Positions 1,500 through 52,847 of a stretch of DNA of 64,000 nucleotides are shown piece by piece. The position numbers were made by a program, and so were the translations under genes. This DNA is from an uncultured Bradyrhizobium sp. Lineage in GTDB: Bacteria; Pseudomonadota; Alphaproteobacteria; Rhizobiales; Xanthobacteraceae. The stretch lies in NCBI RefSeq assembly GCF_947648125.1, contig NZ_CANSMR010000014.1, positions 124,001 to 188,000 on the forward strand, read 5' to 3'. The notes beneath the pieces are model-generated. The model saw only the letters and a list, made by a program, of their open reading frames with translations, was not told where the DNA came from and did no database searches. Every line of letters starts with the position of its first letter. Positions within the stretch are counted from its first letter, which is position 1.

Positions 1500-1973
1500 T
1501 CGCCGGCGTGGCCGCGCCACGCGTAGCCCGAAGGGCGAAGTGTGGCGGAGAGAGTGTCAGAATACGGATATATCACCCTCGGCTGCACACGTTCGTCGAT
1601 GTTCAAGAAACACCCGCACCATAGGCGCTAGCTGTGCGCCAGACACCACGCGCGTCCATGCCAATTCGCGTGCAGCCCGTTCGAAAATATGGGCCGGAGT
1701 ATGGACAAAAACGTTCGACGGAAAATTGAGTTCGCTTACCCGTGAAAAGACTGAACCTGAAATTTCCGTGTGTGCAACTATAAGTTTTCAAATACGTTTT
1801 CTTCTCGCTTTGAGAGAGGCGCTTCAAGGCGTTTTCCGGTTCGGGGACCAAGACATCTGCCCGCATCTCGAACTGTCCAGCCAAGTGCCGGTTGCTGGCA
1901 TGCCGGTTTCCTGTTGTTTTGGACTCACTTATTGATTGGGGAAGATACCTGTCCGGAACCGGGGATACACCAT
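1500..1973. other. Intergenic left boundary of the accessory region
   Basis: No convincing gene in this 474-bp stretch. It contains a 14-bp sequence identical to one near 26.36 kb (1543-1556) that resembles the 3' end of a tRNA-Ser read on the minus strand. It also contains a 23-bp segment (1684-1706) that matches 26281-26303 at 19 of 23 positions. Both fit the left junction of an integrated island. Confidence 0.4.
1543..1556 (-). repeat. Candidate island attachment repeat, left copy
   Basis: TGGCGGAGAGAGTG is repeated exactly at 26358-26371 in the same orientation. Its reverse complement, CACTCTCTCCGCCA, has the form of a tRNA-Ser acceptor 3' strand plus CCA. No full tRNA is present at either copy, so this would be a fragment left by site-specific integration at a tRNA gene. 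That reading is inference. The repeat is short and could be chance in GC-rich DNA. Confidence 0.35.
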
Positions 1974-3743
1974 ATGAGGACGCGAAGGGAGATTGCGGAC
2001 TGGCTGGCTGCAATCGCTCGCGCCGAGTTCGAGCGGCAGCGCGGGCAAGTCGCTGAACTTTCGCCGGAAGCCCAGACAGGACTCCTCGTGGAAGCTTGCC
2101 GGGTGATCGACCTCCATCACGTCATTCATCTCATGTCGAACAAGCCCGAATTGGGCCTATCGCATTTCGATTTCGCGGTAATGTTGCGAGGATGGAACCC
2201 CCTTGCTTCATTGCTTCTGCCGTGCATCGGGAAGATGCACGGCGTTCCACTCAGTGAGAGCACCGCGGATTCCAGGGAAAGAGTCCTCGGCATTCTGATG
2301 AATCTAGGAAGAGCCTCGCTTCTGAGAGAGAGCGCGGAAATGCTTCGCCACGGCATGGCAGAGTGTACCGCTGATGTCAGCACGATAACATTTCGCATGA
2401 GCGAACGTTGTTCCATGGATCACTTTTTGGATCGGATCGAAGCCGACAAGCTAAGAAACCTTGAAGATGCCATGCCGGGAGAGAACGTATTCAAGGAAAC
2501 GGTTCGAAAAACGAGTGTTGAAAACCTCGACGAGCGAATTCGCGAGCTAGTGTATCCGTGGCGTCCCAACAACAACGTGACAATGACAGGCTACGACGCT
2601 GCGCCCGATATCGATTTGCACTTCTTCGCACTGGTCGCGAAAAATGCACGCGACTGGATTGATGAAGCCGGCATCCACGATGACACAGTTCTGGGCAATA
2701 TCACCGGTAAAGACCTTCGCGCCGTCGTCTTCCTGGTGATGAGTTTTCATCTTAAGCATATCCACTTTGTGGATGTCGCGAAAAGCGCGTTTCCCGAAAT
2801 CAACTATGCAATGAGCCTCACGATCTGGAAGCCCCGGGAAGAATTGATCCGGTCGGTCGTAGCTGTAACTGGGATGGAAGAGACCACAGCGGCGGCTGCG
2901 ATCGACATGGCCACGATTCAATCGGGACAGGAATCTTACTTCGAGCAGGAAGTGACTCCCATGCTTCCAATGCTGATCAAGATATCTGAAAACTATCTCT
3001 TGGCCCCCGTCAGCAGCATTTTCCGTAACCCTTTCCTCGGGATCAGAATGATCCACGAAAAATTCGACAAGAGAGCCACGGACAATTTGCGAAAGCATCG
3101 CGAAGACTGGATGATCTCGGAGCTCTACAATTTGTTTCTCGGCCTGCGGTACCTGCAGATGGAAGGTCCGACCCGGCTCCGATATGGCAGGAAGACAGTA
3201 ACCGATATCGATGCTGCTGTATTCGATACGCTGACGGGGGAGTTGGCACTGTTCCAGCTGAAATGGCAGGACTTCAGCTCGAACGATGTTGCTAAACAGC
3301 GCAGCCGGGCCAGAAACTTCGTCGAGAAGGTCGACGCTTGGGCGAAGGGAGTGCAAGACTGGATCGCGGCGTCCGGCGCCACCAGCCTGCTGGCAACGCT
3401 TCGCTTACGACCGGCAAAGGCGATGTCGCAAGTGCGTCTCTTCGCGATTGGACGTTCGGCAGCGCGCTTCCAGAGCTACGGCTTTGAGCCGCAGGAAAAG
3501 GCCGTGGCTTCGGCGACGTGGCGTCAGTTCGTGCGGCTGCGCTACCAGATTGGCCCTGCGGACAACGTATTGCGCGACCTTCACGACGCTATTCGGAAGG
3601 AAAGCACGGTTCCGCTGGAGTTGAAGCCCCTCCGGCAAGAATTCGTGTTCAAGGAGCACACCATCGTGTTCGAAAACCTGTTCAACGAATACGATGATGA
3701 AGGCGACGCTGCTTCAAGGAACCTTGGCTGGCAGCATGGTTGA
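1974..3743 (+). CDS. Large protein with PD-(D/E)XK nuclease-like C-terminal domain
   Basis: About 589 aa from the ATG at 1974. The frame is open from 1770, but the upstream part is low quality. I do not recognise the family as a whole. The region around residues 375-435 looks like a PD-(D/E)XK nuclease core: an acidic helix (DWMISELYNL), then TDIDAAVFD, then a beta strand ending ELALFQLKWQ. This gives the D...QxK arrangement used by Mrr-like enzymes, where Q replaces the E of ExK. The N-terminal 370 residues are mostly helical with no recognised motif. It faces the DISARM-like operon tail to tail, 101 bp from the DrmB-like gene, so it may be an accessory nuclease of that system or a separate restriction gene. 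Catalysis is inferred from the motif only. Confidence 0.55.
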   Translation: MRTRREIADWLAAIARAEFERQRGQVAELSPEAQTGLLVEACRVIDLHHVIHLMSNKPELGLSHFDFAVMLRGWNPLASLLLPCIGKMHGVPLSESTADSRERVLGILMNLGRASLLRESAEMLRHGMAECTADVSTITFRMSERCSMDHFLDRIEADKLRNLEDAMPGENVFKETVRKTSVENLDERIRELVYPWRPNNNVTMTGYDAAPDIDLHFFALVAKNARDWIDEAGIHDDTVLGNITGKDLRAVVFLVMSFHLKHIHFVDVAKSAFPEINYAMSLTIWKPREELIRSVVAVTGMEETTAAAAIDMATIQSGQESYFEQEVTPMLPMLIKISENYLLAPVSSIFRNPFLGIRMIHEKFDKRATDNLRKHREDWMISELYNLFLGLRYLQMEGPTRLRYGRKTVTDIDAAVFDTLTGELALFQLKWQDFSSNDVAKQRSRARNFVEKVDAWAKGVQDWIAASGATSLLATLRLRPAKAMSQVRLFAIGRSAARFQSYGFEPQEKAVASATWRQFVRLRYQIGPADNVLRDLHDAIRKESTVPLELKPLRQEFVFKEHTIVFENLFNEYDDEGDAASRNLGWQHG

Positions 3744-3844: not shown

Positions 3845-5815
3845 TCATCCCAACGTATAACTTTCCTCAAGCAGTTCGGACATGAACCCGCTCTGGCGTG
3901 AAACCGGCGTTCCTACGACAACGGCTCGGTCCAACCCGTGATTAATAGTCTCGCACGATGTTTCCGGGAGGAGGGTGCAAGCGTGGCATGCCGCGAGATT
4001 GGCTTGCTTGGAGCCTTGGCCGCCCAAGTGTTCGGAGCATATCGGGTCCGCTGAACACCACGATGCGCGGCTCAGCGCACGTTGCATGGTCGGACCAAAT
4101 AGTTCAGGGCGCCCCAACCTAACCAATCCACCCAACGTACCTTCAGAGTCCCCGGCGGCAGTATAGATGAGAAAGCCTGCCATTGGCGCGCTTGGGTCGG
4201 AAGACACGTAAAGGCGCTCGCGCAGCGCAGCAGTGCTGTATCCGCAGTCAAAAATGAGCTGGTTGATAAGAATGTGGGCCAGGCTATGGACAAGCAAATA
4301 CCGGGAAGCCCAATCTCGATTGGCTGCTTCCAAAGGCGGGAGAGTCTGAGGAATACCGCCCAAGCGTGCAATAAAGCCATCATCCAGCCGACCTCTCAGC
4401 CACACAGCATTTTCTAACTGCCATTTCTCTATCCGCGCTTCGTTTAGCTCGACATACAGACCTTCTCCAAACACCACGGCAGCCGGAAGCCAACGTTCCT
4501 GTGCTTGAACTGGAGGTGATCGAAAGAGCTGAAGCATCGCGGAGTTTGGCATATTCTCAAGGGGTGCGTTGCTTTGCTTCAAGCGGTCGAAGCCAAAGAA
4601 GGCGCGCGTCTCTCGCAAGCGCTCCACAAGGTTCACCCTCCCGATCCATGGGGCGAGCTCTACTGGCACCTTAGCCATTCTGACTCGTAAATCGGGTACA
4701 AGATCGGGATCGTCCAATTCATTCCTTATGACATTGAATTCGGACCTGCGGAACTGAAGCAATTCCGACTCAGCAGCAGTTGGCACCGCCGCACCCGAAG
4801 GAATCGTCGCTGATTGGGGAGAAAACAAACTCGCCAAGGCAGCCTTTACCTGGCCAAGCTCACTCGATAGCCCGCAAATACGCGACAACTCCGATTGAAT
4901 GTATGCTGCCGCCGACTCTTCGCCGGATATATTCCATATTGTTCGAGCTACACCGAGGGATCCCTCTACAGACCGTGTGATTTCGTTTCGCATTCTTGTG
5001 ATCGAATCATCCTCAACTTGGAGATCAGGCAGCGCGATCGCCGAAATAGTTCGAGGAAAATAGATGTTGGTTTGATTGATAAGGGCTCCAACCAACGGCT
5101 CATTGCAGTTCGCCATGTTAGCGCCCTCCCCCAACCACGGCCGATCGCCTGGACAGCGGATGCCTGCTTTCTGAAAGGCACTTTGCTCCCCGTTTTCAAC
5201 ATCAGGCATAACCGTCGTTCCGGAGAGATTGCGGCCTCGTCTGCCTGTAGATTTATCGGGACATGACTGGCAGGCAATGTGGATACTGCTCAATTCAGAA
5301 CCACCGCGATCAGTCAAAACTAGCTGGTCGTCACTGCTGCACTGACAACCGATCCACTCCTTCCAAGGAAATTCGCAGAGATGGCCCGCCGTGCAAACCG
5401 AGATGAAGCGGACTGGCTGCCAGCGACCGCCCCCCGGAGGTCTATCCACCCTCGTCGTTTGCAAGTTAAATCGCCTCATCTGGCCGGTCCGAGTGTGCCG
5501 ATACCACCTCGGAAAACGCTGGGCGGGGACATTGAGAAGGGCGTTAGGCGGTGCCGTGTCGCCTTTACGCACAATTCGAAAATCCGGTGGCAAGCAAAAT
5601 CGATCGACGCCCAACAACGCTGAAAGCCGTGGCTCGAAACGCTCAAATTCGATCCGATCCGAGCAAGGGATCATTTTTCCCTCGGTCTGATCCCACCGCT
5701 TGAACCAATGATCGAGACCCGCAACAACCTGTGGTACGCCGTCGCGATCCGTATAGATGCTGCCGGGGCCGAAGGGGGCAATCAATTGACCAATACGGAC
5801 CTGCTTGTTTCCCAT
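3845..5815 (-). CDS. drmB: DrmB-like protein (DUF1998) of a DISARM-related system
   Basis: 656 aa, with the features of DISARM DrmB. The N-terminus (QLIAPFGPGSIYTDRDGVP) is the typical start of these proteins. A cysteine-rich segment at about residues 135-180 (CTAGHLCEFPW, CQC, CQSCPD) would bind zinc. The C-terminal DUF1998 region at about 510-640 carries the His-containing helix LVHSLAHILINQLIF and a final cysteine cluster (CSADPICSEH, ACHACTLLPETSC). DrmB works with the DrmA helicase, forming a complex that recognises invading DNA and may help discriminate self from phage DNA. It is the last gene of the minus-strand operon, 62 bp after the DrmA-like gene. Assignment to the DrmB/MrfA-type DUF1998 family is secure; membership of classical DISARM is less so because drmC is absent. 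Confidence 0.85.
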   Translation of the reverse strand: MGNKQVRIGQLIAPFGPGSIYTDRDGVPQVVAGLDHWFKRWDQTEGKMIPCSDRIEFERFEPRLSALLGVDRFCLPPDFRIVRKGDTAPPNALLNVPAQRFPRWYRHTRTGQMRRFNLQTTRVDRPPGGGRWQPVRFISVCTAGHLCEFPWKEWIGCQCSSDDQLVLTDRGGSELSSIHIACQSCPDKSTGRRGRNLSGTTVMPDVENGEQSAFQKAGIRCPGDRPWLGEGANMANCNEPLVGALINQTNIYFPRTISAIALPDLQVEDDSITRMRNEITRSVEGSLGVARTIWNISGEESAAAYIQSELSRICGLSSELGQVKAALASLFSPQSATIPSGAAVPTAAESELLQFRRSEFNVIRNELDDPDLVPDLRVRMAKVPVELAPWIGRVNLVERLRETRAFFGFDRLKQSNAPLENMPNSAMLQLFRSPPVQAQERWLPAAVVFGEGLYVELNEARIEKWQLENAVWLRGRLDDGFIARLGGIPQTLPPLEAANRDWASRYLLVHSLAHILINQLIFDCGYSTAALRERLYVSSDPSAPMAGFLIYTAAGDSEGTLGGLVRLGRPELFGPTMQRALSRASWCSADPICSEHLGGQGSKQANLAACHACTLLPETSCETINHGLDRAVVVGTPVSRQSGFMSELLEESYTLG

Positions 5816-5877
5816 TTTGTGGCCCCAGAAGTTGCAACTAAGGTTGTTGAATTCGTTTCAGAACGATGGCTCGATGG

Positions 5878-8800
5878 TCAGGGTGCGGTATCGTAGCCCT
5901 GAGTAATGGTAAGCTCGGCGCTGCGCTCTACTTGTCGCATGCTGCTGGGAACAACCACGCCTCGTCTTTCCTGTTGTTTAGTGGCGAACTGCCCGGGCCA
6001 CAGCATGAGATATTCCCCATCCACACGCTGAGGAAACTTCTCCCATTCCTGCGGATTTAACCCCCATTTGGATATCAATTCGTCGCGCACTCGCTTCAAG
6101 CTGGCAAGCGATTGGACCTGATCCTCAGGCGGCTGAATGATCAGACAACGATCACAGAGCAATTGATAAGCCGACTCCACCGCCGTGGCATATGCCTGAT
6201 AATTGAAAACGGGAGCTGAACTCTGCTGTCGAGCCCACGCAAGCAATACCCCCGAAAGGCCGCGCTGGATCGCCGACGTCGCAAATGGAGTAGTTGTATT
6301 CGGCTCAACACGCTCATATAGCCTGCGATGATAGCTATGGAATTGCTCATAGTGAGACCGATCGCGACTCTTCGAAGGGTTGTAGATCATGAGGACAAGC
6401 CCTGCTCGATCCCACCAGCGGCGACCCACCCGCCCTGTCACCTGAATGTACGAGGCAGTGCTCTTTGGCTGACCCACCACCCCCATCAACGAAAGGCGAT
6501 CAATATCCACCCCGACTTCGATGATATTTGACGCCAAGCACGCATCCAGATTGCCTCGAACCGAGCTCTCATCGTACTGCGTCGACAGTCGATCCATCAT
6601 GCTTACAATCTCAGCCTGAGACAACCGACTGGTCAGTTCCTCAATAATCTTCAATTGACGCCTGTCATCCTGCGCAAAGCCCTCCCGATTGAAAATAAAT
6701 TTGAGTCTGGAGCGAATGTCCGAGTCAAATAGAGTTCTCGCACCGCCCAGCTCGCGAATGCTGTTGTAGAAGGCGAGTAAAGTCCACCATGCGTCACGAC
6801 GACTTGGGGTGAACGACCACGGACGAAAAAGAGCGGATGAAAATGTACGAACCTGTGTGGTCAGGACCGAACCGTAGTCATTGGCATGAATACCCAGATA
6901 GAGGCGCCCAGAACGCAGATTGCCCTTATCGTCACGGGCGTATTTGCCAAAGAAGGAATCGCCCATCGAGAGGCCGGGCGTCGGGAATAGGTGCGTCTCT
7001 GTTCGCGCGTAGAGTGCCCTGACTTGGTCGGCAGCTCCGCGTATCGTGGCAGTAGAAGCAATAACCTTAGGTTTGACGGTGACGCCGTTCAGCTCCGCGG
7101 AGCACAATTTTTCGATGACGCCTTCGTAAAGTGCGTACATCGTCCCGAGCGGTCCGGATATCAGATGAAGTTCGTCCTGGATAATAAGCCCTGGTGGCAT
7201 CGATACCCGGCGGGACTTGGAGTCGACGATACGACTGCCAAACAGAGCGCTCGCTTCAGGTCGATAAGCTATGATTGCAAGTTTATCAGCTGTTGAAATT
7301 ATGATTGAAGGCGGGTTCAGATAGATTCGCTCGTCAATCACATCGACCGGAAGCCAAGTGTCCGGATTCTCCTGCCCGAATTCGCACTTGCCGTCAGAAC
7401 ACAACAGGAGTGGCTCGTTGAGCCGTTCCTGAATTCCACAAGTCCGCACTGCTGCCCATTGGGAATCTGTAAGCGCACGCGGCTTGCTCCCATTATAGCG
7501 GCCAATTTCAGCGCGACACCACGGGCATTCGGTCAGAACCAGCGGATTTCCTTCGGTGTCTCCGTTGCGGAACTTGCGTAGGGCTATCTTCGCATCTCTG
7601 ACCTTGTTTGGGGATCCATCTGATCCGATCCAAAGCCCCAGCGAAAAGCGGTGTCCCGGGATATTTCCGTCGAGATGCTTAGAAGGATTTCGTCGCAAAT
7701 ACTCCATCGAGCATATGAGGCTAGCGGCTCGTTGGAACTGCTGGGTGGTAAGCATTCGGAGCGTATAGCGCATGAGAACATTGGTACCGTCACGCCGTGG
7801 TCCAGTGTCGCCTTCCATCAGCAATCGTTCGTGGAACATGTAGAAAGCCATTACGCCGAGATATGCCTCGGTCTTGCCTCCACCAGTTGGGAACCATATG
7901 AGATCAACGATATTGCGATCTGAAGATTGACCATCCCGCACGCCGTGCAAGGACATCAAAAGAAAGGCTATTTGAAACGCTCGCCAAGAACCTACCCGGT
8001 CTGGGTTCTCGAGATTTCCTTCGTAGATTTCGGATGGTGATTGATACCCACCGGACGGCACAACCCGACGATTCGCCGCATCCCAAGTCAATGGTCGACG
8101 ATTTACCTGCTTTGTTCCGATCTGCTGCAGGAGCATCGCAAGATTGGCAAGCCGAAAGGCCCGTCGAACACGAGCATCGCTGCGAAGCAGCGTTACGCCA
8201 TCGGTGATCCGCTTCAGGCACCGGTCGCAGGCATCTAGGTGACGGGCCGCGACAGCCGCAAAGGTACCATCAAGACCCGTTGCTTCTTGGCGTTTTCTTT
8301 TTATCCAATCACCATATCCCAAAATAATCTTATCGACCGATTGCCATCCTTCGCCAGTGCCGTCCTCTGTCAGATTTGCTAGCGATCGCATTGAAAGCTT
8401 TACGGGCTCGCCATCAACCTCGATATCTGGCGTCATGCTCGGAAGCTCAACGGAGGGCATCACGTCAGCAAAAATTGTCTTTGGGGTGGTCCCAAGGTCA
8501 GACTCCCATCCTGCGGCACATCCGTGCCCGATGGCCCAAGTAGCTGATTCACGATAAAGCAAGGCCAGCGATTGCTCTTCTGTATCCAGCTTGGAGAACG
8601 GGCGTTCGCTTTCCGGGTACCGGACCAACTCACCGTCCAGAATTTCGACATCAAAATGAGTTTGGTAGAGAATCTGCTCGCGGGGCTCTCGAGTGCCGTC
8701 AACGATGGTGGAGTTTCGCAGCACAACTGTGAGCAAAAAATAATCGGCTTCACCACGAAGACGGCGCGGGAAGATTTCAATCCGGAGCGATATTGGCGAT

Positions 8801-9534
8801 CCGGACGGCATCGTCAGGTCTCTCCGCACAACGCTTCCGGAGAGAAGGTCCGCACGGTCGATCAAAACCTCGCAGTCAGGAAGAACTGCCGGTAGTCTTC
8901 TCCAGATCGGAGCCTCTCTCGTACCACCGTCGCCATCCGTTGTCCGATGCGTGCATAGCTCATATCGCCCATTCAACGATATCGCCGGGGCCCCCACGAA
9001 TTGCCAGGAGAACTTTCGCTTCAACGGCAGGCGCACTGCAACTTGGCCCTGCGAACCCAAACGCGCACAAAAAGATAACCCTAGTGACGATGGGTGACGA
9101 GCATCCGGGCTGGTGACCTCAAAATCGTCCTGTGGTCCGACGCCTCCGTCCACACTCTCGCCTTCCGATTCTTCCACTTCGTCATCTTCATCTGCACCGG
9201 CCGCGTCCTGAGCGGTCTCTTCCTTGGCGTCTGCTTCCGCGCCGATCGTATCACCTGACTGCAACGCGGCTTCGTCTGGGGCATCAGGCACGACCCCTGC
9301 TGGGTGGAGAAGACCTGCACCGTATTTTCGGTGGGGTGTTTCTCGTTGAAAATATAGAACCTCTTCCAGACTTGAGTCCGCCGCTGGACGCCAAGCCATG
9401 GGGCCTGAACGTCGCTGGTCGGGATCAACGAAGTCTCGGCCGACGAACGCGATGACGGCAGGATCCTTGAGCGATTGACCGGGGCCCACAACCTCCCCTC
9501 TAAGCCAAGCGATTAGTTCGGATCGTTCGCTCAT
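5878..9534 (-). CDS. drmA: DrmA-like superfamily 2 helicase of a DISARM-related system
   Basis: 1218 aa, close to the usual size of DrmA. The N-terminal part contains a very acidic linker at about residues 95-135. Helicase motifs follow in order: Walker A WFPTGGGKTEAY at about 548, a cysteine group at about 670-715 (CPWC ... CSDGKCEFG), motif II DELH at about 788, and the C-terminal RecA-like lobe with ASNIIEVGVDIDRLSLM and QVTGRVGRR at about 1010-1040. This is the YprA/MrfA-related layout shared by DISARM and Dpd helicases. In DISARM, DrmA with DrmB loads on unmodified phage DNA. It starts 4 bp after the NERD-helicase gene, so the two are almost certainly co-transcribed. Family call is strong; DNA specificity is unknown. 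Confidence 0.9.
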   Translation of the reverse strand: MSERSELIAWLRGEVVGPGQSLKDPAVIAFVGRDFVDPDQRRSGPMAWRPAADSSLEEVLYFQRETPHRKYGAGLLHPAGVVPDAPDEAALQSGDTIGAEADAKEETAQDAAGADEDDEVEESEGESVDGGVGPQDDFEVTSPDARHPSSLGLSFCARLGSQGQVAVRLPLKRKFSWQFVGAPAISLNGRYELCTHRTTDGDGGTREAPIWRRLPAVLPDCEVLIDRADLLSGSVVRRDLTMPSGSPISLRIEIFPRRLRGEADYFLLTVVLRNSTIVDGTREPREQILYQTHFDVEILDGELVRYPESERPFSKLDTEEQSLALLYRESATWAIGHGCAAGWESDLGTTPKTIFADVMPSVELPSMTPDIEVDGEPVKLSMRSLANLTEDGTGEGWQSVDKIILGYGDWIKRKRQEATGLDGTFAAVAARHLDACDRCLKRITDGVTLLRSDARVRRAFRLANLAMLLQQIGTKQVNRRPLTWDAANRRVVPSGGYQSPSEIYEGNLENPDRVGSWRAFQIAFLLMSLHGVRDGQSSDRNIVDLIWFPTGGGKTEAYLGVMAFYMFHERLLMEGDTGPRRDGTNVLMRYTLRMLTTQQFQRAASLICSMEYLRRNPSKHLDGNIPGHRFSLGLWIGSDGSPNKVRDAKIALRKFRNGDTEGNPLVLTECPWCRAEIGRYNGSKPRALTDSQWAAVRTCGIQERLNEPLLLCSDGKCEFGQENPDTWLPVDVIDERIYLNPPSIIISTADKLAIIAYRPEASALFGSRIVDSKSRRVSMPPGLIIQDELHLISGPLGTMYALYEGVIEKLCSAELNGVTVKPKVIASTATIRGAADQVRALYARTETHLFPTPGLSMGDSFFGKYARDDKGNLRSGRLYLGIHANDYGSVLTTQVRTFSSALFRPWSFTPSRRDAWWTLLAFYNSIRELGGARTLFDSDIRSRLKFIFNREGFAQDDRRQLKIIEELTSRLSQAEIVSMMDRLSTQYDESSVRGNLDACLASNIIEVGVDIDRLSLMGVVGQPKSTASYIQVTGRVGRRWWDRAGLVLMIYNPSKSRDRSHYEQFHSYHRRLYERVEPNTTTPFATSAIQRGLSGVLLAWARQQSSAPVFNYQAYATAVESAYQLLCDRCLIIQPPEDQVQSLASLKRVRDELISKWGLNPQEWEKFPQRVDGEYLMLWPGQFATKQQERRGVVVPSSMRQVERSAELTITQGYDTAP

Positions 9535-9538
9535 CTGG

Positions 9539-11257
9539 TTATACCCCCGATATCCAGCTCAGAAGAATTGCCTTGGACTGGTTGTTGCACAATACGCGAA
9601 CGCTTTCGGTAGCCCTCGTCATGCCTGTGTAGAAAAGGCTTCGTTCGAAGGCATGATCGGCCAAGTCAACGTCTGTCAGAATTACAATTTTGTTTTCCAT
9701 TCCCTTGAATGCGTGGACACTTGCATACCTAGTGGCGCCTGCTCCATGCCGCATGGGCCTCAAAATGAACTCTTCGCTGCTGATCCGCGCAGCTGCGCTC
9801 TGACTGTCGGCTCGAAAGGAAAGTATTGTTATCTCTGAGGGTTTGTAGCCATTCGCGGTGAATTCGCGTAGAAGGCGCACAATTTCTTCTGACTGCTCGG
9901 CTTCGCTTCCGTAAAAGCGCACATCGTAGTTGGCGATACTGCTGCCTGACCTCATGTAATCCGAGTACACTTGGGTACCGAGCCCGGCCAACTTTACTGC
10001 GGTCTCACCGACGATCCGATAGTTGCGGCAGTTCTCCGCCAACTTCCATCTCACGGGATTGGCCGCAATTTCCAAATTGGCGAGGGACTTGCGTAATGGC
10101 TCGCGATCCGTGAGCACTTGGTTTTCAAAATCTCCGAAAAGTGCGAAAGCCCCTTTGGCTACGCCTCCTACTAGAAAGCGTGCAAGACAGTCCCACAACC
10201 TGGGTCGCGCCAACAAATCTTGTGCTTCGTCGAGGACCAAATAGTCAAATCGGGCCTCAGCCGAGAAATCAGGGTCCGTTAGCCGCGCTTCCAGCAGGTC
10301 TGGCAATTCATGTTCCCAAAAATGCTGAGTAGGAGAAGCTGGAATTGGTACCTCACTCATTTCGGCCATCACTTGGATGGCGCGACCTACTATCAGGTTC
10401 GGAGGGGCCGTACCCGCCGTTCCGATTTTCTCTCTCATCCAATTACCGATCAATTGATTGAAGCAAAGCAACGCGACCCTTTTTCCCTTCTCGGCCGTGC
10501 GTTGAGCAATTTCCATCGCTATCAGCGTTTTTCCCGTTCCCGCGCCGCCCGAAATGATCGTGCGCTCGTTCAATTCCACCAGTTGGAGTACCGGTTTCTG
10601 CTGCGCTCTCAGCAATTGTTCTAGGTCGTGCTGCCTTCGGTTTATCTCCTCGCGAGCGCCTGGCCGAAATTTTTGAACTGGCACGCAGCACTTTATTATC
10701 GCCTCGATTTGGTCCGCTGAAAGTCCACGAGAAAGTGGCTTCAGATCCACATCAGCTTCAATACTCTTGGCAATCCTCGCCCTAAGGTCCACCTCTAATG
10801 CCTTGGCATCGCCAAATCTTCGAAACGCCCTCGCATCCATCAACTCCCACGGTGCAACAGAAATATTCGGCAAGAGAGCGAAGGAGGAGCGAGGGAAAAC
10901 GCAGCATTGGACGATTGGCAAACTTGCGAACTGAGGCGCCAGAGTCTTCAAACGTCGGTGAAACGTCCCGCGCGCATCAGCAACTTGCTTGAAGGGCGAA
11001 CGTTCAATTGTAGGCGGAGACCACTTTTCTCCATCGAACGAGATGTTCTCATGAGATTTGACCTCCACACACATCGCTCCCAAGTCGGGAACTATGATCA
11101 CAAAATCTATCTCGGTTCGGCGCCGGCGATTCCAAGGTGCCAAATCAAGGGAATGCAAGACAACCCACTCAGATGAGCAGGCGTTCAACATATTGAAGAC
11201 ATCACGTTCGCCAGGCGGCGTTCGTTCATCCATAAATGACGGGATCATTCGCGCCAT
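9539..11257 (-). CDS. NERD-domain nuclease fused to a superfamily I (UvrD/Rep-like) helicase
   Basis: 572 aa. Residues 15-125 form a NERD (nuclease-related) domain: RRTEIDFVIIVPD followed by MCVEVKSHE, the D...ExK pattern of a PD-(D/E)XK fold. A superfamily I helicase follows: Walker A SGGAGTGKTLIAM at about 236, Walker B DYLVLDEAQDLL at about 341, a late motif ASVHAFKGMENKIVILTD at about 515, and TGMTRATESVRVL near the end. Such proteins would couple unwinding to cleavage. It overlaps the preceding gene by 13 bp. An alternative ATG at 11248 would give the common ATGA overlap. It occupies the operon position where DISARM would have other effectors, so it is a likely substitute for the missing PLD nuclease DrmC. 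That role is inference. Confidence 0.85.
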   Translation of the reverse strand: MARMIPSFMDERTPPGERDVFNMLNACSSEWVVLHSLDLAPWNRRRRTEIDFVIIVPDLGAMCVEVKSHENISFDGEKWSPPTIERSPFKQVADARGTFHRRLKTLAPQFASLPIVQCCVFPRSSFALLPNISVAPWELMDARAFRRFGDAKALEVDLRARIAKSIEADVDLKPLSRGLSADQIEAIIKCCVPVQKFRPGAREEINRRQHDLEQLLRAQQKPVLQLVELNERTIISGGAGTGKTLIAMEIAQRTAEKGKRVALLCFNQLIGNWMREKIGTAGTAPPNLIVGRAIQVMAEMSEVPIPASPTQHFWEHELPDLLEARLTDPDFSAEARFDYLVLDEAQDLLARPRLWDCLARFLVGGVAKGAFALFGDFENQVLTDREPLRKSLANLEIAANPVRWKLAENCRNYRIVGETAVKLAGLGTQVYSDYMRSGSSIANYDVRFYGSEAEQSEEIVRLLREFTANGYKPSEITILSFRADSQSAAARISSEEFILRPMRHGAGATRYASVHAFKGMENKIVILTDVDLADHAFERSLFYTGMTRATESVRVLCNNQSKAILLSWISGV

Positions 11258-12849
11258 TGGTCAGCCATTCTCAAATCTTGAACAAGCTTCAGCTTGGCTT
11301 CAGGCACTCTGAATCCCTTTTCTATACCAAAGACCCGCAGGAAAACGAAATCACCGCGCACACCAAACGACGCTGGAATATTGACCCGAAAGCCCGTCGT
11401 CGCCGGCAGTTTGCTCCGAATGTCGGGTAGTAACTTGAGCAGTATGCCAGACAACTCCTCGTCAAGAATCTCCCTCTCCAAGAACCCGGTCTGGATAGCT
11501 TCGCCGCGTGAGCGACGAATCTCTTCCCACGCAAGCTGCCAAAGAGGAAGAATCGTACCATTTGAGGCCGTCACGGTTTCACTACCAAGGCCAAGCACTT
11601 CAAGCAGAAGCTTGAAGTGCTTCTTCTCCAGTGGAGCGTGGATCACGGTGGATGGAGATCTAGACCAATGATGAACCAATGTCCGCAATGACACTAACTC
11701 TATTCCCGATTCCTTTAGACGCCGAATCAGGTCGAACATTCCGCTCTCGATCTCGCGTCGCAGATGCGATTTCCATAAGCTGCTGTAACGACCGCCTGCA
11801 TGAAGACCGCCGAAGCTAACGTCCGAGATTGATGGCTTGATCAGGAACATGCCCTCAGTAAGCGTGAGTCCTGGGATACGGTTCCCTATAGCCTGATGCG
11901 CACCAGAATCTGGATCAAAGCTCAACACTGGAGCGTAGGGTGGATAGAAGATTGCATGGTCCTCATCGATCTGTACAAGTGTTGCTGCGCGAGCCTCGCC
12001 CCCTTGGACGATCTGCTTGAAAAGCTCCAGTTCGTCGGGAATACCGCCACGATCTGCGCCCGGATCTTCACCGTAGTATGTTGTCCGACTTGCCCAATTG
12101 AACTTGCTTCCGGTGACAGCCCCATCTGCCAATCGATGATCTGAATTCCGACCTGCAAGGACTGGATCATAGCCGAAATCTGGCTCGTCCTTGCTTCCCC
12201 ACCACACCACTTGTTCAAGTCGAGCATATCGCGGTGCGTTTATCAGCGCGTCTGGCGCCGAGCCCCAGCCGAAGGCACGCAAAGGCCCTACTTTTATTAA
12301 AGCATCGAACGGACTCAGTTCGCGATAGCCACGGACTGAGTTGACAAAAACATCGTCCGGCAAGCGGTTGGTGCTTCTGTCGTCGAAGAGTGACTTGAAA
12401 TGTTGCCGGGCACGAACATGACAATAGATTCTGAAATCAGCACCCGTTGCACGAAGGGATTGAATTATCTCAACCACCTTGGCCCGAACAGGATTGCCCG
12501 TCGAGGCAAGTGCCTCCATTGCTCGAAATGCGTCTTCATAGAGCGCACTGACGTCTGCCCCCCATCTTTTTCGTACCGCTTCGCGCTGCCCTATGAGATC
12601 CGACATCGCTTCTACCGTCGTTTCGTCGAACTTTACTGGCACAGTAAGCCATTCCGAAAGTATGGTTCTCAACCCATCTGATATGTCGAGGCCTTGCTGA
12701 TCACCTGATTCCCGAAGAGCGACAATTATCTGTCTCAAATTTCGGCGAAGGATTCCGAAATACGGCGACGCAACTTCGTGTCGCTCGATGCTTTGAGTTT
12801 TCGATCTGTCGAGAAAATCAAAGAGTTCCGATACTGTGACTACCATCAT
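11245..12849 (-). CDS. Unrecognised DISARM-operon protein (534 aa)
   Basis: I do not recognise this family. The first 150 residues look helical. The middle part is richer in beta structure and aromatic residues (GYRELSPFDALIKVGPLRAFGW, VVWWGSKDEPDFGYDP). The C-terminal part ends FVFLRVFGIEKGFRVPEAKL. No nucleotide-binding, nuclease or membrane motif is visible. It overlaps the gene before it by 4 bp (ATGA) and the NERD-helicase gene after it by 13 bp, so it is translationally coupled inside the defence operon and is probably a structural or sensing subunit. It and the neighbouring 373-aa protein together occupy the place of the large uncharacterised DrmE of class 2 DISARM. Whether they are diverged halves of it cannot be judged by eye. 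Confidence 0.6.
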   Translation of the reverse strand: MMVVTVSELFDFLDRSKTQSIERHEVASPYFGILRRNLRQIIVALRESGDQQGLDISDGLRTILSEWLTVPVKFDETTVEAMSDLIGQREAVRKRWGADVSALYEDAFRAMEALASTGNPVRAKVVEIIQSLRATGADFRIYCHVRARQHFKSLFDDRSTNRLPDDVFVNSVRGYRELSPFDALIKVGPLRAFGWGSAPDALINAPRYARLEQVVWWGSKDEPDFGYDPVLAGRNSDHRLADGAVTGSKFNWASRTTYYGEDPGADRGGIPDELELFKQIVQGGEARAATLVQIDEDHAIFYPPYAPVLSFDPDSGAHQAIGNRIPGLTLTEGMFLIKPSISDVSFGGLHAGGRYSSLWKSHLRREIESGMFDLIRRLKESGIELVSLRTLVHHWSRSPSTVIHAPLEKKHFKLLLEVLGLGSETVTASNGTILPLWQLAWEEIRRSRGEAIQTGFLEREILDEELSGILLKLLPDIRSKLPATTGFRVNIPASFGVRGDFVFLRVFGIEKGFRVPEAKLKLVQDLRMADQWRE

Positions 12850-13967
12850 CGGCTCCCTTTCTTTAGCTGCAAGAGGCGGATGCCCGCAGGAACGCCCAGT
12901 CGCCCCCTATTGACTTCAGGATCTTCGACGAACCATTGGCGCAAGCCGACGAGGCGATTGCCCACTGTCTCGGATCGTTCTCTGTCTACACTTCGGTTGA
13001 TTACGCCAATAACATCGGACCGCTGAAATTGCGGAAGGTCGATGACCTTGAGGAAGGATGCATCGCCGTCGGCCACGACCAATGCGGTTTCGGGTCCCGG
13101 ACGATCAATCTCCTCAGTTCTGGAGTTGAAAAAATTGACGCGGGACACTCGATTCGAGCTTGACCACCCATGCACAGCCAAAAGCTCAGGCAAACCGTAT
13201 TCCAATCCCTCACACTTGAATCGGATCGACGCGCAAGCTGCATGAGTTGCGGATTTGCCCGTGGCGCGTCCTGCAAAGCACAGGCCCGAAAATGATTCTC
13301 TGACGTTTTGAGAAACAATCTGCGCGCCTTCAATTATTTGTTCATAGGCAGAAGCGGGCAAGGCGCCCTCGCCATTGATCAGTTTGGGCAGTGGATCTCC
13401 ATCGATCCGCAGGTTCACCGCAGACTTTGGAGTAAATTGCCAAGTGCCGCCGTCGTGGCGCGTGACAATTCCCAAGGCACCAGAATCCTTTATCGCGGTG
13501 ATTTGAAACGGCCCTTTGCGCTGGCTGTGACGCAGCAAGCCGCTTGCCTCTGCCACGTAACCACAGCGCTTCAATTCAGGACGGCAGCGGACATCGCAGA
13601 TTGCACACGCTCTCAGATATTGGCTCGCGTACTGCAATAGTGCGTGATAGTGGCCCGTTAGGTTGGTCGCTTCAGTTCGACCCAGATCTCTGACAAGCGC
13701 ACCTAGGACTATCAATCCGGCTGCAGGGGAATCACACGGCATCGAAACAACAGCAATTCTCCGCTGGTTCGACTCTTGGTCGCGCCACCCGTAGCCAAAT
13801 CTAACGAGAAACTCGACCCACTTGGGTGCTGGTCGCCATTCTCCTTGAAATTCAGAAAAAAGTGCTTTCAACCGGCCCCCCGGCATTGAACTACTGGATT
13901 GGTCTCCCACACAAGCAGCCGACCCTGAAGCGAACTGGCTAGACCGGCCCCCTAGACCAGTGCACAT
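12846..13967 (-). CDS. Unrecognised DISARM-operon protein (373 aa)
   Basis: Second gene of the operon, 36 bp after the methyltransferase and overlapping the next gene by 4 bp. Internal ATG codons, such as the one at 13886 (MPGGRLKALFSEF), are alternative starts because the first 27 residues are low complexity. A small cysteine group (CAICDVRCRPELKRCGY) at about residues 118-136 could bind a metal. The segment CFAGRATGKSATHAA at about 230 resembles a P-loop but lacks the G-x4-GK[ST] order. The C-terminal part reads TALVVADGDASFLKVIDL, a beta strand followed by acidic residues. Function unknown. Conserved tight coupling makes it a system component rather than a passenger. Confidence 0.55.
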   Translation of the reverse strand: MCTGLGGRSSQFASGSAACVGDQSSSSMPGGRLKALFSEFQGEWRPAPKWVEFLVRFGYGWRDQESNQRRIAVVSMPCDSPAAGLIVLGALVRDLGRTEATNLTGHYHALLQYASQYLRACAICDVRCRPELKRCGYVAEASGLLRHSQRKGPFQITAIKDSGALGIVTRHDGGTWQFTPKSAVNLRIDGDPLPKLINGEGALPASAYEQIIEGAQIVSQNVRESFSGLCFAGRATGKSATHAACASIRFKCEGLEYGLPELLAVHGWSSSNRVSRVNFFNSRTEEIDRPGPETALVVADGDASFLKVIDLPQFQRSDVIGVINRSVDRERSETVGNRLVGLRQWFVEDPEVNRGRLGVPAGIRLLQLKKGSR

Positions 13968-14003
13968 TAGCTCAGTTGCAACCCATGGTGCAAAATCTTT
14001 GAT

Positions 14004-15596
14004 CTAACTTGCTTTTCTTAGCTTTTCGCGATTTGTGGAGGATTGCGCGCTTGTCAGAAGACCGAGCAACGCCCCGGCAATCTTCCGCGCAAGGAACGGC
14101 GGAACAGCGTTACCCACCTGCACGTATTGCTCTGTTCGATTTCCCTTGAAAAGGTAGTTGTCTGGAAAGGTCTGGAGCCGAGCGGCCTCCCTGACGGTCA
14201 GGCTTCTGCACTGGATCGGATCAGGATGAATGAAATAGTGGCCGTCCTTGGAAATGTGGCTCGTGATCGTTGTAGACGGCCGCCTCCAAAGCTGGACTCG
14301 GAACCGATCCGCGAATTTCCCTGTCTCCCAGTTACGATGGTCGGGCGCCAACTCACGCGGGAAGTCCTTCGCCTTTGGAGATACGCCCGCAACTCTTCCG
14401 TACAGTGACGCAAAAAAATAGCGTCCGAGATCAGCGAGCATGTGACCACGTGTTTCGTTGTTCGGAAAGCACTTCAGTTTGGCATCGACAAGCCAGCGTT
14501 TGAGATCGGCAGGGCATCGGGCCCCGACTCCCGAATAGTTACCTCCGGAACGTCGCTTGATCCTACCCGTCTTCGCAAGGGCACTCGCAATATGTCCAGC
14601 GCGCTTCCGGAAGGCCTCGTTTTCCCTTGCAGCAAGGCCGGTTGGCATCTTGGCCACCTGACGCATTATCTGAGAGGACTTCGCCTTCCAAAGGTCCTCG
14701 TCGTCCTCCCCTGAGCTCAATCCGCTTCGAAGCCTCGGCATGCCCTTCAGGACGTCCTGTACGGTGACTGCGCGATCTGATTTCGGGATCAGTGCGGCAT
14801 CTACCAGCCCATCGAGATTCCGAGCGATATCGGCGCGTACGCCCACAATGATCACGCGGTGACGCGATTGGGGCACGCCATGGTCCTCGGCCTTCACGAC
14901 GAAATCGTAGGCCGGGGGATGCCCTGCCCCACTGGAGAATACCGGTCCGAAACGCGGCGTGAGCGGGATGAGTTTGTATGAACCACCGCCCACACGGCCC
15001 AAATCATCGAGCACCTGATCGAATACACGCTCTCCGTTTACAGACGACGAGAGGAGCCCCTTGACATTCTCCATGACAAACGCCGCCGGCATCAGCTGTT
15101 GAAGTATGCGGATGTATTCCCTGTACAGGAAGTGGCGATGGTCCCTGCTCGCCTCGTAACCTTCTGTACCCCGGTTTCTCGCCCTGCCGACGAGGGAATA
15201 TGCCTGACAAGGCGGACCTCCGATCAGGATAACGTTGCGCCCAAACCTGTTGCTGATCTGCCTGAGACGAATGTCAATCTCGGCGATGCCCTTGGGCGAG
15301 CCCAGTTCGAGCTTCACCGTTTCAAGGCAGGCGCACTTCCACTCTGCCGGATAAGCAGACATCCAGTCCGGCTCTGGAATCTCGCCATTAAGGAAGCGGT
15401 AATAGTCGGGCGGCGGACGGCCATCGAATTGACGCACGAAGCTTCGCAGCCGAAGGGTCTCGAAGGCGGAATCCTCCTTTTCAACCGAAAGCACGACCCG
15501 AAAGGGACGCACGCCATCCTTACGGACGCTGGAAAAACCTTCGGCAAGCCCGCCTGGGCCCGCGAAGAGGTCAACGATGGCAAATTCGGTTTGCAT
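14004..15596 (-). CDS. C5-cytosine DNA methyltransferase (DrmMII-like)
   Basis: 530 aa, with the full motif set of a DNA (cytosine-5) methyltransferase: motif I VDLFAGPGGLAEGF at about residue 8, motif IV GGPPCQAYSLVGR at about 125 with the catalytic Cys, motif VI ENVKGL, motif VIII GVPQSRHRVIIVG, and motif X QVGNAVPPFLARKIA near the end. It would mark host DNA so that the DISARM-like proteins attack only unmodified DNA, as DrmMII does in class 2 DISARM. It is the first gene of the minus-strand operon and is divergent from a Vsr endonuclease across a 69-bp gap that must hold both promoters. The target-recognition region lies between motifs VIII and X; the sequence recognised cannot be predicted. 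Confidence 0.92.
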   Translation of the reverse strand: MQTEFAIVDLFAGPGGLAEGFSSVRKDGVRPFRVVLSVEKEDSAFETLRLRSFVRQFDGRPPPDYYRFLNGEIPEPDWMSAYPAEWKCACLETVKLELGSPKGIAEIDIRLRQISNRFGRNVILIGGPPCQAYSLVGRARNRGTEGYEASRDHRHFLYREYIRILQQLMPAAFVMENVKGLLSSSVNGERVFDQVLDDLGRVGGGSYKLIPLTPRFGPVFSSGAGHPPAYDFVVKAEDHGVPQSRHRVIIVGVRADIARNLDGLVDAALIPKSDRAVTVQDVLKGMPRLRSGLSSGEDDEDLWKAKSSQIMRQVAKMPTGLAARENEAFRKRAGHIASALAKTGRIKRRSGGNYSGVGARCPADLKRWLVDAKLKCFPNNETRGHMLADLGRYFFASLYGRVAGVSPKAKDFPRELAPDHRNWETGKFADRFRVQLWRRPSTTITSHISKDGHYFIHPDPIQCRSLTVREAARLQTFPDNYLFKGNRTEQYVQVGNAVPPFLARKIAGALLGLLTSAQSSTNREKLRKAS

Positions 15597-15665
15597 TCAC
15601 CCCTTCTCAAATGAGCATCTCAAACCATAATCAACCAAAGCGAAGGCCGACGCCAGGAAAAGTTG

Positions 15666-16142
15666 ATGGTAGATGTTGTCGATAGGATAACGCGCTCGAG
15701 GATGATGGCTGGCATCCGAGGCAAGAACACAAAGCCCGAACTGGTGCTGCGGCATGCCCTGCATCGACTCGGTCTGCGATACAGGCTACATGTGTCGACC
15801 CTTCCTGGCCGCCCCGATATCGTCATGCCAAAGTATCGCGCGATCGTCCAGGTGCAGGGGTGCTTTTGGCACCGGCATGAGGGCTGTTCATTTGCCACGA
15901 TTCCGGCCTCGAACATCAAGTTCTGGGACTCCAAGTTCGCGGAGACCATAAGACGCGATCACCGCAATCTTGAAGCCCTGCGTCGGCTCGGCTGGCGAGT
16001 AGCCGTAGTCTGGGAATGCGCGATCAACAAGGAGGGCGGAGATGCGGTTGCCACAAGGGTAGCAATGTGGCTGTCGTCCAAGCGCGCCACTGCCGAAATC
16101 CCGGCTTGGCGGACTGCCACTGCGGTCAGGACAAGATCCTAA
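15666..16142 (+). CDS. vsr: Very short patch repair (Vsr) endonuclease
   Basis: About 158 aa from the ATG at 15666, which has AGGAAAAG upstream; a TTG at 15663 is the alternative. The protein shows the Vsr signature: SRMMAGIRGKNTKPELVLR, then RPDIVMPKYRAIVQVQGCFWHRHEGC with the active-site Asp and zinc ligands, then the final strand LGWRVAVVWEC. Vsr nicks at T:G mismatches formed when 5-methylcytosine deaminates, and so protects genomes that carry a C5 methyltransferase. Its position head to head with the methyltransferase suggests it repairs the mutational cost of this system's own methylation. Clear family call. Confidence 0.92.
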   Translation: MVDVVDRITRSRMMAGIRGKNTKPELVLRHALHRLGLRYRLHVSTLPGRPDIVMPKYRAIVQVQGCFWHRHEGCSFATIPASNIKFWDSKFAETIRRDHRNLEALRRLGWRVAVVWECAINKEGGDAVATRVAMWLSSKRATAEIPAWRTATAVRTRS

Positions 16143-16602: not shown

Positions 16603-17808
16603 ATGGCTCGCATAAGGGTGCTAACTGCACTCAAGATCAGACAGAATCTCAAGCCGGGGATGTACGCCGACGGGCTCGGGCTCTACCTGAAGGTCCGCGC
16701 CGGCAATTCCAAGAGCTGGATTTTCCGGTATCGCACCGGCGGCAAGCTGCGGGACATGGGCCTTGGCCCGTTTCATACCGTGTCGCTTGCCGAAGCGCGG
16801 GAGAAGGCGGAGGCCTGCCGGGCCATGCGCCTCAAGGGCCTCGATCCGTTGAACGAGCGCCATAAAGAGCAGCAAGCCAGGACAGCCGAAGCGGCCGAGG
16901 CCATCACCTTCGAGAAATGTGCCGAGGCGTATATCACCGCCCACAAGGCCGGCTGGAAGAATGGCAAGCACGCCGACCAGTGGACAACTACACTCCAGAC
17001 CTATGTCTATCCCATCTTCAAAGACACGCCGGTTGCCGCGATCGACGACGCGTTGGTCCTGAAAGTCTTGCAGCCGATCTGGGAGGAAAAGACCGAGACG
17101 GCATCCCGTATCCGAGGCCGGATCGAGCGCATTCTCGACTTGGCTCGCGTCATGAAATACCGCACGGGCGACAACCCGGCCCGGTGGCGGGGTCATCTCG
17201 ACCATCTTCTGCCCAAGCGCTCGCGGGTGGCGACCGTCAACCATCATGCCGCCCTGCCGATCGACGAGACGCCCGGCTTCATCCAGACTCTCCAGCGGGA
17301 AGAAACCGTCGTCGCCCGTGCGCTGGAATTTTGCATTCTCAACGCGACCCGCACCAATGAGACGATGGGTATGCGCTGGAGCGAGTATGACGAGAAGGCT
17401 CGGCTCTGGACCGCGCCAGGCGCGCGCATGAAGGCGGGCCGCGATCACCGCATCCCGCTCGCCCCACGATCGCTGTCCATTCTCGCCGAGATGCAGGACA
17501 TCCGCAGCGGCGACTTCGTCTTTCCTGGAGGTGTGCAGGAACGGCCACTCAGCTCCATGGCATTCCTGATGTTACTGCGGCGGCTGGGGCGCAACGACAT
17601 CACCGCCCATGGTTTCCGCTCGACCTTCCGCGACTGGGCGGCGGAGCGCACCGACTTCCCGAACGAGGTCGTCGAGATGGCACTCGCCCACACGATCAGC
17701 AACAAGGTCGAAGCCGCCTACCGGCGGGGCGATCTGTTCGACAAGCGCCGGCAGCTTGCAGAAGCATGGGCCGCGTTCTGCGCTGGCACTGCCCCATCCA
17801 AGCCCTGA
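16603..17808 (+). CDS. P4-type tyrosine integrase
   Basis: 401 aa, the normal length for integrases with an N-terminal DUF4102 arm-binding domain (residues 1-95, including GMYADGLGLYLKVRAGNSKSW). The core-binding domain is at about 105-200 and the catalytic domain at 215-395. Catalytic residues are visible: Arg in LNATRTNETMGMRW, His and Arg in HGFRSTFRDW, the second His in ALAHTISN, and Tyr in VEAAYRRGDL. It would integrate and excise a genomic island at a tRNA or similar site. It is followed by a small AlpA-like regulator, the usual partner controlling excision. Confidence 0.93.
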   Translation: MARIRVLTALKIRQNLKPGMYADGLGLYLKVRAGNSKSWIFRYRTGGKLRDMGLGPFHTVSLAEAREKAEACRAMRLKGLDPLNERHKEQQARTAEAAEAITFEKCAEAYITAHKAGWKNGKHADQWTTTLQTYVYPIFKDTPVAAIDDALVLKVLQPIWEEKTETASRIRGRIERILDLARVMKYRTGDNPARWRGHLDHLLPKRSRVATVNHHAALPIDETPGFIQTLQREETVVARALEFCILNATRTNETMGMRWSEYDEKARLWTAPGARMKAGRDHRIPLAPRSLSILAEMQDIRSGDFVFPGGVQERPLSSMAFLMLLRRLGRNDITAHGFRSTFRDWAAERTDFPNEVVEMALAHTISNKVEAAYRRGDLFDKRRQLAEAWAAFCAGTAPSKP

Positions 17809-52821: not shown

Positions 52822-52847
52822 GGTAGGATTCCTTTGCTGGTGGATAT

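What the first reader, a model, noticed from the sequence alone, without database searches (positions are those of the whole stretch)
3845..15596. DISARM-related operon without drmC, with a NERD-helicase and two unknown subunits
A six-gene minus-strand operon links a C5 methyltransferase, two unrecognised proteins, a NERD-SF1 helicase, a DrmA-like helicase and a DrmB-like DUF1998 protein. Seen directly: helicase, methyltransferase and zinc motifs, plus tight overlaps. Known: classical class 2 DISARM is drmE-drmA-drmB-drmC-drmMII, where drmC is a phospholipase-D protein. Here no PLD motif occurs; the NERD nuclease-helicase is the obvious replacement effector. This could be an undescribed branch of the YprA/MrfA-helicase defence families.
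Basis: partly seen in the sequence, partly recalled or inferred. Interest (0 to 1): 0.85.

Follow-up and report, generated by a model that had tools for sequence, protein, structure and literature searches.

The report
DISARM variant with split DrmE
A gene cluster related to the DISARM anti-phage defence carries a combined nuclease-helicase and no DrmC nuclease gene, and its two seemingly unknown proteins are most likely one known DISARM protein (DrmE) cut into two genes; the same gene order recurs in many bacterial phyla.

Summary
The six-gene operon is real: C5 methyltransferase, 373 aa, 534 aa, NERD-SF1 helicase, DrmA, DrmB (15596-3845, minus strand); no DrmC lies beside it. Main correction: the two 'unknown subunits' are most likely a split DrmE. 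30 of 61 members of the 534-aa family match the DrmE model (the window's own does not), and intact DrmE genes sit at the same place in related operons (DrmE-NERD-DrmA-DrmB). The link of the 373-aa protein to the DrmE N-half is weak by sequence. So this is class 2-like DISARM, not a system with two new subunits. The order is widely conserved: 63 of 64 relatives with enough upstream sequence carry both halves; 37 of 65 also carry the NERD helicase. Distances of the five genes correlate at r 0.92-0.98, with the methyltransferase only 0.39-0.45. Five NERD nuclease residues are invariant in 44 of 44 orthologues. Against 'NERD replaces DrmC': 28 of 65 relatives lack NERD and show no DrmC either. PADLOC's class 2 definition is not met. 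My literature searches found no description. Best reading: an unnamed DISARM branch whose NERD nuclease-helicase is an old, co-inherited but dispensable effector. Function is inferred, not tested.

The parts
14004..15596 (-). C5 cytosine methyltransferase, DrmMII-like (530 aa)
   Evidence: PF00145 6.3e-49; best PADLOC model DrmMII 283 bits, but type II MTase and DruM models also match; loosely coupled to the other genes in relatives
12846..13967 (-). 373-aa protein, proposed N-terminal half of a split DrmE
   Evidence: No family match; position, length and colinearity with intact DrmE; weak profile match
11245..12849 (-). 534-aa protein, C-terminal half of a split DrmE
   Evidence: 30 of 61 family members match NF038316 DrmE; family profile aligns to the C-half of intact DrmEs; the window member alone matches no model
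9539..11257 (-). NERD nuclease domain fused to an SF1 helicase (572 aa)
   Evidence: PF08378 1e-11, PF13538 3.5e-10; motif residues invariant in orthologues
5878..9534 (-). DrmA, SF2 YprA-type helicase (1218 aa)
   Evidence: PADLOC DrmA 656.9 bits; NF038325 808.9 bits, under its cut-off of 950; solved DrmA 7s9v at 9.5e-128
3845..5815 (-). DrmB, DUF1998/MZB protein (656 aa)
   Evidence: NF038324 372.9 bits, cut-off 240; PF09369 6.8e-08
15663..16142 (+). Vsr mismatch endonuclease, divergent from the methyltransferase; companion module
   Evidence: PF03852 3.1e-27; TIGR00632 126.9 bits, cut-off 97.85

Best explanation
A class 2-like DISARM anti-phage system in which DrmE is split into two genes and a NERD nuclease-SF1 helicase is the built-in nuclease candidate, with no drmC. 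Proposed working (inferred, from published work on another DrmAB): the DrmA-DrmB motor loads on invading DNA with a 5' single-stranded end and is restrained by 5-methylcytosine; the C5 methyltransferase marks host DNA and Vsr repairs the T:G mismatches left by deaminated 5mC. The two DrmE halves together form one subunit, probably a scaffold or specificity part, that couples DrmAB to the NERD protein, which unwinds and cuts the captured DNA. Shown here: gene order, family identities, co-inheritance, conserved motif residues. Not shown: any activity, complex formation or phage resistance.
For: DrmA and DrmB identity. Split DrmE: DrmE-model matches of the Nostoc and Priestia genes at this place, 30 of 61 family members, intact DrmE at the same place before NERD-DrmA-DrmB in L106, L107, L140, L141, profile alignments. 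The split forms a single group in the DrmA tree, support 100, next to the four intact-DrmE+NERD rows. Conservation: 63 of 64 loci with >4.3 kb upstream of DrmA have both halves; 37 of 65 have NERD directly after the second half. Distance correlations 0.92-0.98 among the five genes. NERD and helicase motif residues invariant in 44 of 44. DrmAB substrate preference, reduced ATPase on 5mC DNA, and dispensable, often missing DrmC: PMC9142583 (sections 4 and 11 and passages read).
Against: 28 of 65 relatives lack NERD, so it is not essential to the unit. The window's own 373- and 534-aa proteins match no DrmE model, and no member of 61 of the 373-aa family does. The 373-aa profile beats the best decoy (23.0) for L106, L107 and L139 but not for L140, L141, L142, L143. 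DrmA is under the NCBIfam equivalog cut-off. The methyltransferase may belong to separate R-M sets in some relatives (NaeI in R. opacus; NgoMIV in Solirubrobacter). No structure could be predicted.
Confidence: 0.72

Rival explanations
1. One reading: two new, non-DrmE subunits, and the NERD protein as the obligate replacement of DrmC.
For: The window's two proteins have no family match; the sequence link of the 373-aa protein to DrmE is weak; no DrmC was found beside any of the 81 loci.
Against: DrmE-model matches in 30 of 61 relatives of the 534-aa protein; intact DrmE at the same place; NERD missing in 28 of 65 relatives.
Confidence: 0.1
2. DrmAB with split DrmE defends by itself, by translocating on and blocking phage DNA or with unrelated host nucleases; the NERD helicase is an accessory that widens the range or processes ends, not the effector.
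For: 28 of 65 relatives lack NERD; PMC9142583 proposes blocking of replication or recruitment of other nucleases (section 11).
Against: Where present, NERD distances track those of DrmA and DrmB at r 0.97-0.98 and its nuclease residues are invariant, which suggests a steady role for the nuclease.
Confidence: 0.3
3. The NERD protein and the five-gene unit act in DNA repair or control of plasmids and other mobile elements rather than mainly against phages.
For: YprA-family proteins outside defence act in repair (introduction of PMC12458937); members lie on plasmids.
Against: DrmA falls with DISARM models, patchy occurrence, methyltransferase and restriction genes nearby.
Confidence: 0.1

Closest known systems
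DISARM class 2 (DrmA, DrmB, DrmC, DrmE, DrmMII)
   Same: DrmA, DrmB, a C5 methyltransferase and, by inference, DrmE in two pieces; L142 shows the DrmC-bearing layout DrmE-DrmA-DrmB-PLD protein
   Different: No DrmC; DrmE split; a NERD-SF1 nuclease-helicase lies between DrmE and DrmA
DISARM class 1 (DrmA, DrmB, DrmC, DrmD, DrmMI)
   Same: DrmA and DrmB
   Different: No DrmD, DrmMI or DrmC; DrmA in a different, well supported part of the tree
TALON (PMC12458937, section 5 read)
   Same: A YprA-type helicase together with a NERD nuclease
   Different: TALON has an ARMADA-like YprA, TPR-CSD and TBP genes; none of these was found here, and DUF1998 is in a separate gene
NERD-SF1 helicases of other defence sets (PADLOC RTasNERD-Hel, C3a187, Nhi)
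   Same: Domain layout of the NERD helicase (83.5, 65.9 and 29.7 bits)
   Different: Those models belong to other systems; here the protein sits in a DrmE-DrmA-DrmB unit
RecBCD/AddAB-type helicase-nucleases (recalled)
   Same: Would work alike if the SF2 and SF1 motors act on one DNA end
   Different: No shared subunits beyond SF1 helicase and PD-(D/E)xK superfamilies; RecD2 and RecD models match far under their cut-offs

Membership tests
DISARM class 2 (PADLOC definition, passage of PMC9252829 read) | DrmA and DrmB | tested here: met
   PADLOC DrmA 656.9 and DrmB 190.3 bits; NF038324 DrmB over cut-off, NF038325 DrmA 808.9 under its cut-off of 950
DISARM class 2 (PADLOC definition) | DrmC (PLD nuclease) | tested here: not met
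   No PLD match in the six proteins; next gene after DrmB is convergent and unrelated; PF13091 elsewhere in the genome only on other contigs
DISARM class 2 (PADLOC definition) | DrmE | tested here: inconclusive
   Not recognised in the window's own proteins; C-half supported through the family and intact relatives, N-half weakly
DISARM class 2 (PADLOC definition) | DrmMII C5 methyltransferase | tested here: met
   PADLOC DrmMII 283.2 bits, best model; MTase_II and DruM models match as well, so the label is not specific
DISARM class 1 (same source) | DrmD and DrmMI | tested here: not met
   No credible match among the ten proteins scanned, six operon proteins and four neighbours (the DrmD match of the NERD protein, E 0.036, is a P-loop cross-match)
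TALON | TPR-CSD fusion and TATA-binding protein genes | tested here: not met
   No such Pfam match in the ten proteins scanned
[quoted passage not shown]
   DUF1998/MZB is in the separate DrmB gene; no PglX; only weak helicase cross-matches to BrxHI/HII, best E 0.0017
Any anti-phage defence system | Protection against phage | not testable with these tools
   Needs cloning and phage challenge

The most novel reading that the evidence does not exclude
A two-motor DNA-destroying machine: DrmAB, an SF2 translocase that loads on unmethylated 5'-ended DNA, is stably paired, through a two-part DrmE, with an SF1 nuclease-helicase whose best curated helicase matches are RecD2 and RecD (far under cut-off). 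This would be a RecBCD/AddAB-like complex, restrained by methylation and dedicated to defence, and would answer what cuts the DNA in DISARM systems without DrmC.
Probability: 0.3. Interest if true: 0.8.

Novelty: new variant of a known kind. Interest (0 to 1): 0.6.

Why it matters
PMC9142583 says that DrmC is dispensable and often missing from annotated operons and that it remains a mystery how DNA degradation is achieved (section 11 read). A large clade in which a conserved nuclease-helicase is inherited with DrmAB gives that question a testable candidate, and its natural members with and without the NERD gene are ready comparisons. It also explains why annotation misses such loci: there is no DrmC, and the DrmE halves fall under model cut-offs or match no model.

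Tried and rejected
Considered and dropped: membership of TALON, ARMADA and DISARM class 1 (defining genes not found); a hidden PLD-fold DrmC in the 373- or 534-aa protein (no PLD match in sequence searches; folds could not be predicted, so this is not excluded by structure).

A first DrmC profile was wrong: its seed was an over-long reading frame overlapping DrmB, so the DrmC labels are void. The search was repeated with the annotated class 1 DrmC sequences: besides the two seeds it found only one weak hit, L079, E 0.002, a PLD protein on the opposite strand about 6 kb past DrmB. The same two seeds did find the DrmC of L142 (4.3e-05) and L109 (1.8e-13). The HKD-motif scan recognised 1 of 2 class 1 DrmC controls and L142's, and 4 frames in 81 loci, none next to DrmB except DrmB of L090 itself by chance; weak evidence.

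Led nowhere: the 534-aa protein as query in 289 class genomes and 391 family genomes matched only the window's own genome and nothing in plasmids, although a distant version exists in a genome of the same family (L106), so these searches miss diverged forms; 373-aa protein in plasmids; NERD alignment in viral contigs; DrmA in phages; intact DrmE of L107 in plasmids; the DISARM_DrmE model in 13 genomes reached through loci (no control rang); DNA of the Serratia relative in E. coli genomes. PDB searches with the two DrmE-half profiles gave no credible match (best E 0.0055, a designed repeat protein, and 0.13); the NERD phmmer hits in PDB are to a designed PPR protein and look spurious. Promoter- and terminator-like sites were no more frequent than in shuffles.

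Limits: the genome scan kept the best 80 of 239 relatives, ranked by likeness to the window's DrmA fragment, so counts lean to close kin. Some contigs end inside the operon or soon after DrmB. Reading frames were called by a simple script, family profiles were grown from the same loci, and E-values of small script databases are rough. Alignments A6 and A7 hold 61 of the 69 and 61 of the 75 hits: dropped were those outside a length window, those from plasmid or G-genome loci, and two duplicate loci (L072, L087). The NERD-minus labels include cut contigs; one search is the cleaner count. In 'no DrmE' means not detected, and the place of L142 (branch 9.94) is unsure. In one search the MTase correlations also exceeded all 500 permutations, so only the contrast in r is informative.
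Full report
Observation. DrmA (PADLOC 656.9 bits; NF038325 808.9, cut-off 950), DrmB (NF038324 372.9, cut-off 240), a C5 methyltransferase and a NERD-SF1 helicase are recognised; the 373- and 534-aa proteins are not. DrmA matches the solved DrmA 7s9v at 9.5e-128. The gene after DrmB is a convergent 657-aa frame without family match, so no DrmC is adjacent; PF13091 matches in the genome lie in two frames on other contigs. A Vsr gene diverges from the methyltransferase and an integrase gene follows it.

Gene order elsewhere. A Rhodococcus opacus plasmid (L003) has a 304-aa frame, 507 aa, NERD helicase, DrmA (39% identity) and DrmB (37%) in the same order; its 507-aa protein resembles the window's 534-aa protein only locally (E 3e-05), the annotated 207-aa protein hardly (E 0.021). 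A Deinococcus psychrotolerans plasmid has 339 aa, 540 aa, NERD, DrmA, DrmB across the record start. A scan of the species-genome collection with a DrmA fragment gave 239 relatives, of which the best 80 were kept. Of 64 loci with more than 4.3 kb upstream of DrmA, the window included, 63 have both the 373-like and the 534-like gene (exception L029), and 35 have NERD directly before DrmA. By a count that tolerates broken or over-long DrmA frames, 37 of 65 loci with both genes and DrmA have NERD directly after the 534-like gene and 28 do not; the 28 are 17 of the Bacilli group, 7 cyanobacteria and 4 others (L058, L091, L095, L098). No DrmC was found beside the operon in the 81 loci, but some contigs stop soon after DrmB. 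By record titles and tree labels the order occurs in Pseudomonadota, Acidobacteriota, Chlorobiota, Gemmatimonadota, Chloroflexota, Actinomycetota, Bacillota, Rhodothermota, Nitrospirota, Myxococcota and Cyanobacteriota, and on the Deinococcus plasmid. Near the window it is rare: the 534-aa query matched only the window's own genome among 391 of its family, although a distant, unsplit version exists in a family member (L106); DrmA of any kind matched 16 of 100 relatives, the window's genome included, the others with at most 50% identity and most as partial matches. This fits horizontal gain but does not prove it.

What the two unknowns are. At this place the 483-aa gene of Nostoc HK-01 matches the DrmE model over 393-802 (65.2 bits, cut-off 80) and Pfam DrmE_C (28.2, cut-off 27); the 278-aa gene of Priestia matches DrmE 580-837 (42.5) and DrmE_C (28.8). 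The Nostoc protein finds the Rhodococcus 507-aa protein by tblastn (E 3e-12, 94% covered). 30 of 61 members of the 534-aa family match NF038316 (best 6.6e-28) and 3 of 61 NF038323; the window's own matches neither. Intact DrmE genes sit at the same place: L107 (methyltransferase-DrmE 906 aa-NERD-DrmA-DrmB) and L106 (a 1792-aa SF1-helicase-like/DrmE fusion-NERD-DrmA-DrmB), both over the DrmE cut-off; L140 (DrmE 797-NERD-DrmA-DrmB-methyltransferase-Vsr) and L141 (DrmE 816-NERD-DrmA-DrmB-methyltransferase), and without NERD L139; L142 has DrmE-DrmA-DrmB-DrmC. The 534-aa profile aligns to the C-half of L106, L107, L139, L140, L141 with 96.5-98.2% probability and to L142 and L143 with 84% and 90%. 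The 373-aa profile is the weak point: scores 27.1 (L106) and 25.5 (L107) against a best of 23.0 in 160 decoy frames and 20.6 in 100 shuffles; 32.7 for L139, but 22.8, 18.4, 15.8 and 16.9 for L141, L140, L142 and L143. A three-sequence N-half profile aligned along most of its length at 29.1, for which I ran no matching decoys. No member of 61 of the 373-aa family matches a DrmE model. Position, length (about 330 + 510 against 838) and colinearity carry the rest.

History. In a DrmA tree of 60 rows (quick search, SH-aLRT) the 47 split rows form one group with support 100; the four intact-DrmE+NERD rows (L106, L107, L140, L141) group beside them (97), and the 51 together have support 100, while L139 falls outside with L018. 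So NERD probably joined before DrmE split and was lost later in Bacilli, cyanobacteria and a few others; this is inference from one quick tree.

How tightly the parts belong together. Pairwise distances of the five genes correlate at r 0.92-0.98 (n 37-66 loci); with the methyltransferase r is 0.39-0.45 (n 32-48) and with Vsr 0.60-0.75 (n 20-26); all exceed 500 of 500 permutations, so shared descent inflates every value and only the contrast counts. The NERD protein keeps E17, D51, E65, K67, Q91 and K243, D343, E344, R548 in 44 of 44 orthologues of 540-640 aa; that these are PD-(D/E)xK and helicase motif residues is recalled. Of 64 loci 44 hold a C5 methyltransferase, up- or downstream and on either strand. 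Of 81 loci 50 have a methyltransferase: 23 with Vsr (17 of them within 600 bp of it), 11 with an HhH-GPD (EndoIII-like) protein, 16 with neither, none with both; 3 loci have Vsr alone (family). In L086 and L087, which are near-identical loci, the HhH-GPD match lies in the same 685-aa frame as the methyltransferase. Both kinds of enzyme can repair T:G mismatches from deaminated 5mC (recalled), but an EndoIII-like protein may also be a housekeeping one.

Mechanism. PMC9142583 (sections 4 and 11 and passages read) reports that DrmAB prefers 5'-overhang DNA and hydrolyses ATP more slowly on 5mC DNA, and that DrmC is dispensable and often missing, with the nuclease step unexplained. I infer that here the NERD helicase supplies the nuclease, coupled through DrmE. 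That 28 of 65 relatives lack it means the rest can act without it or with another nuclease. Nothing here tests function.

Comparison and literature. [quoted passage not shown] DrmC is not met and DrmE only by inference, so I do not file this as class 2 but as a class 2-like variant. Searches of the open library for DISARM with drmA, drmB, NERD, ARMADA, drmE, DrmC, drmMII and for NERD helicases listed no paper that, from titles, abstracts' beginnings and the passages I opened, describes this layout. PMC12458937 (abstract, sections 3, 5, 8, 26 and passages read) names ARMADA, BRIGADE and TALON and mentions many uncharacterized DISARM-like classes; its supplements were not readable here and the first DISARM paper is not held.

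Noticed in passing
L010, L012, L014, L015 (Azospirillum, Rhizobium and Shinella plasmids): A second layout of DrmAB with a NERD helicase: UvrD-type helicase, DrmA, DrmB, then the NERD helicase downstream; their DrmA rows form a clade of their own.
   Followed up: partly
L053, L055, L056, L058, L060, L064, L098 and others: An HhH-GPD (EndoIII-like) protein near the C5 methyltransferase in 11 of 81 loci, never in a locus with Vsr; in L086 and L087 it appears to share one 685-aa frame with the methyltransferase.
   Followed up: partly
L106:4613-9991: A 1792-aa protein in a genome of the window's family that joins an SF1-helicase-like N-terminus to DrmE, just before NERD-DrmA-DrmB.
   Followed up: partly
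L011:5495-6889: A RelA/SpoT-domain protein between a C5 methyltransferase and a UvrD helicase-DrmA-DrmB set on a Tsukamurella plasmid.
   Followed up: no
L109: A contig of the viral collection with an SF1 helicase, DrmA, DrmB and a PLD DrmC, so SF1 helicases and DrmC can occur together outside this clade.
   Followed up: no
L108: A contig of the viral collection with DrmA and DrmB of this kind and a C5 methyltransferase on the other strand; the stretch held starts at DrmA.
   Followed up: no
window 20381-21772 (+): PD-(D/E)XK restriction-endonuclease-like protein (PF20796 4.8e-92, PF22558), near the operon and the integrase gene at 16603-17808.
   Followed up: no
window 44476-44775 and 46441-46740: A direct repeat of at least 300 identical bases, each copy just before a 390-aa frame (44796-45968, 46761-47933); the first frame has a helix-turn-helix domain.
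   Followed up: no
window 52451-53146 and 60223-60916: Two stretches 79-80% identical, about 7.8 kb apart.
   Followed up: no
window 34797-37142 (+): AAA ATPase with a peptidase M41 domain, FtsH-like.
   Followed up: no
window 1770-3743 (+): 657-aa protein convergent with the operon, without family match and without relatives in the fetched loci.
   Followed up: no
window 3845-15596: G+C of the operon is about 53-57% in 2-kb steps against 58-62% in much of the flanking DNA.
   Followed up: no
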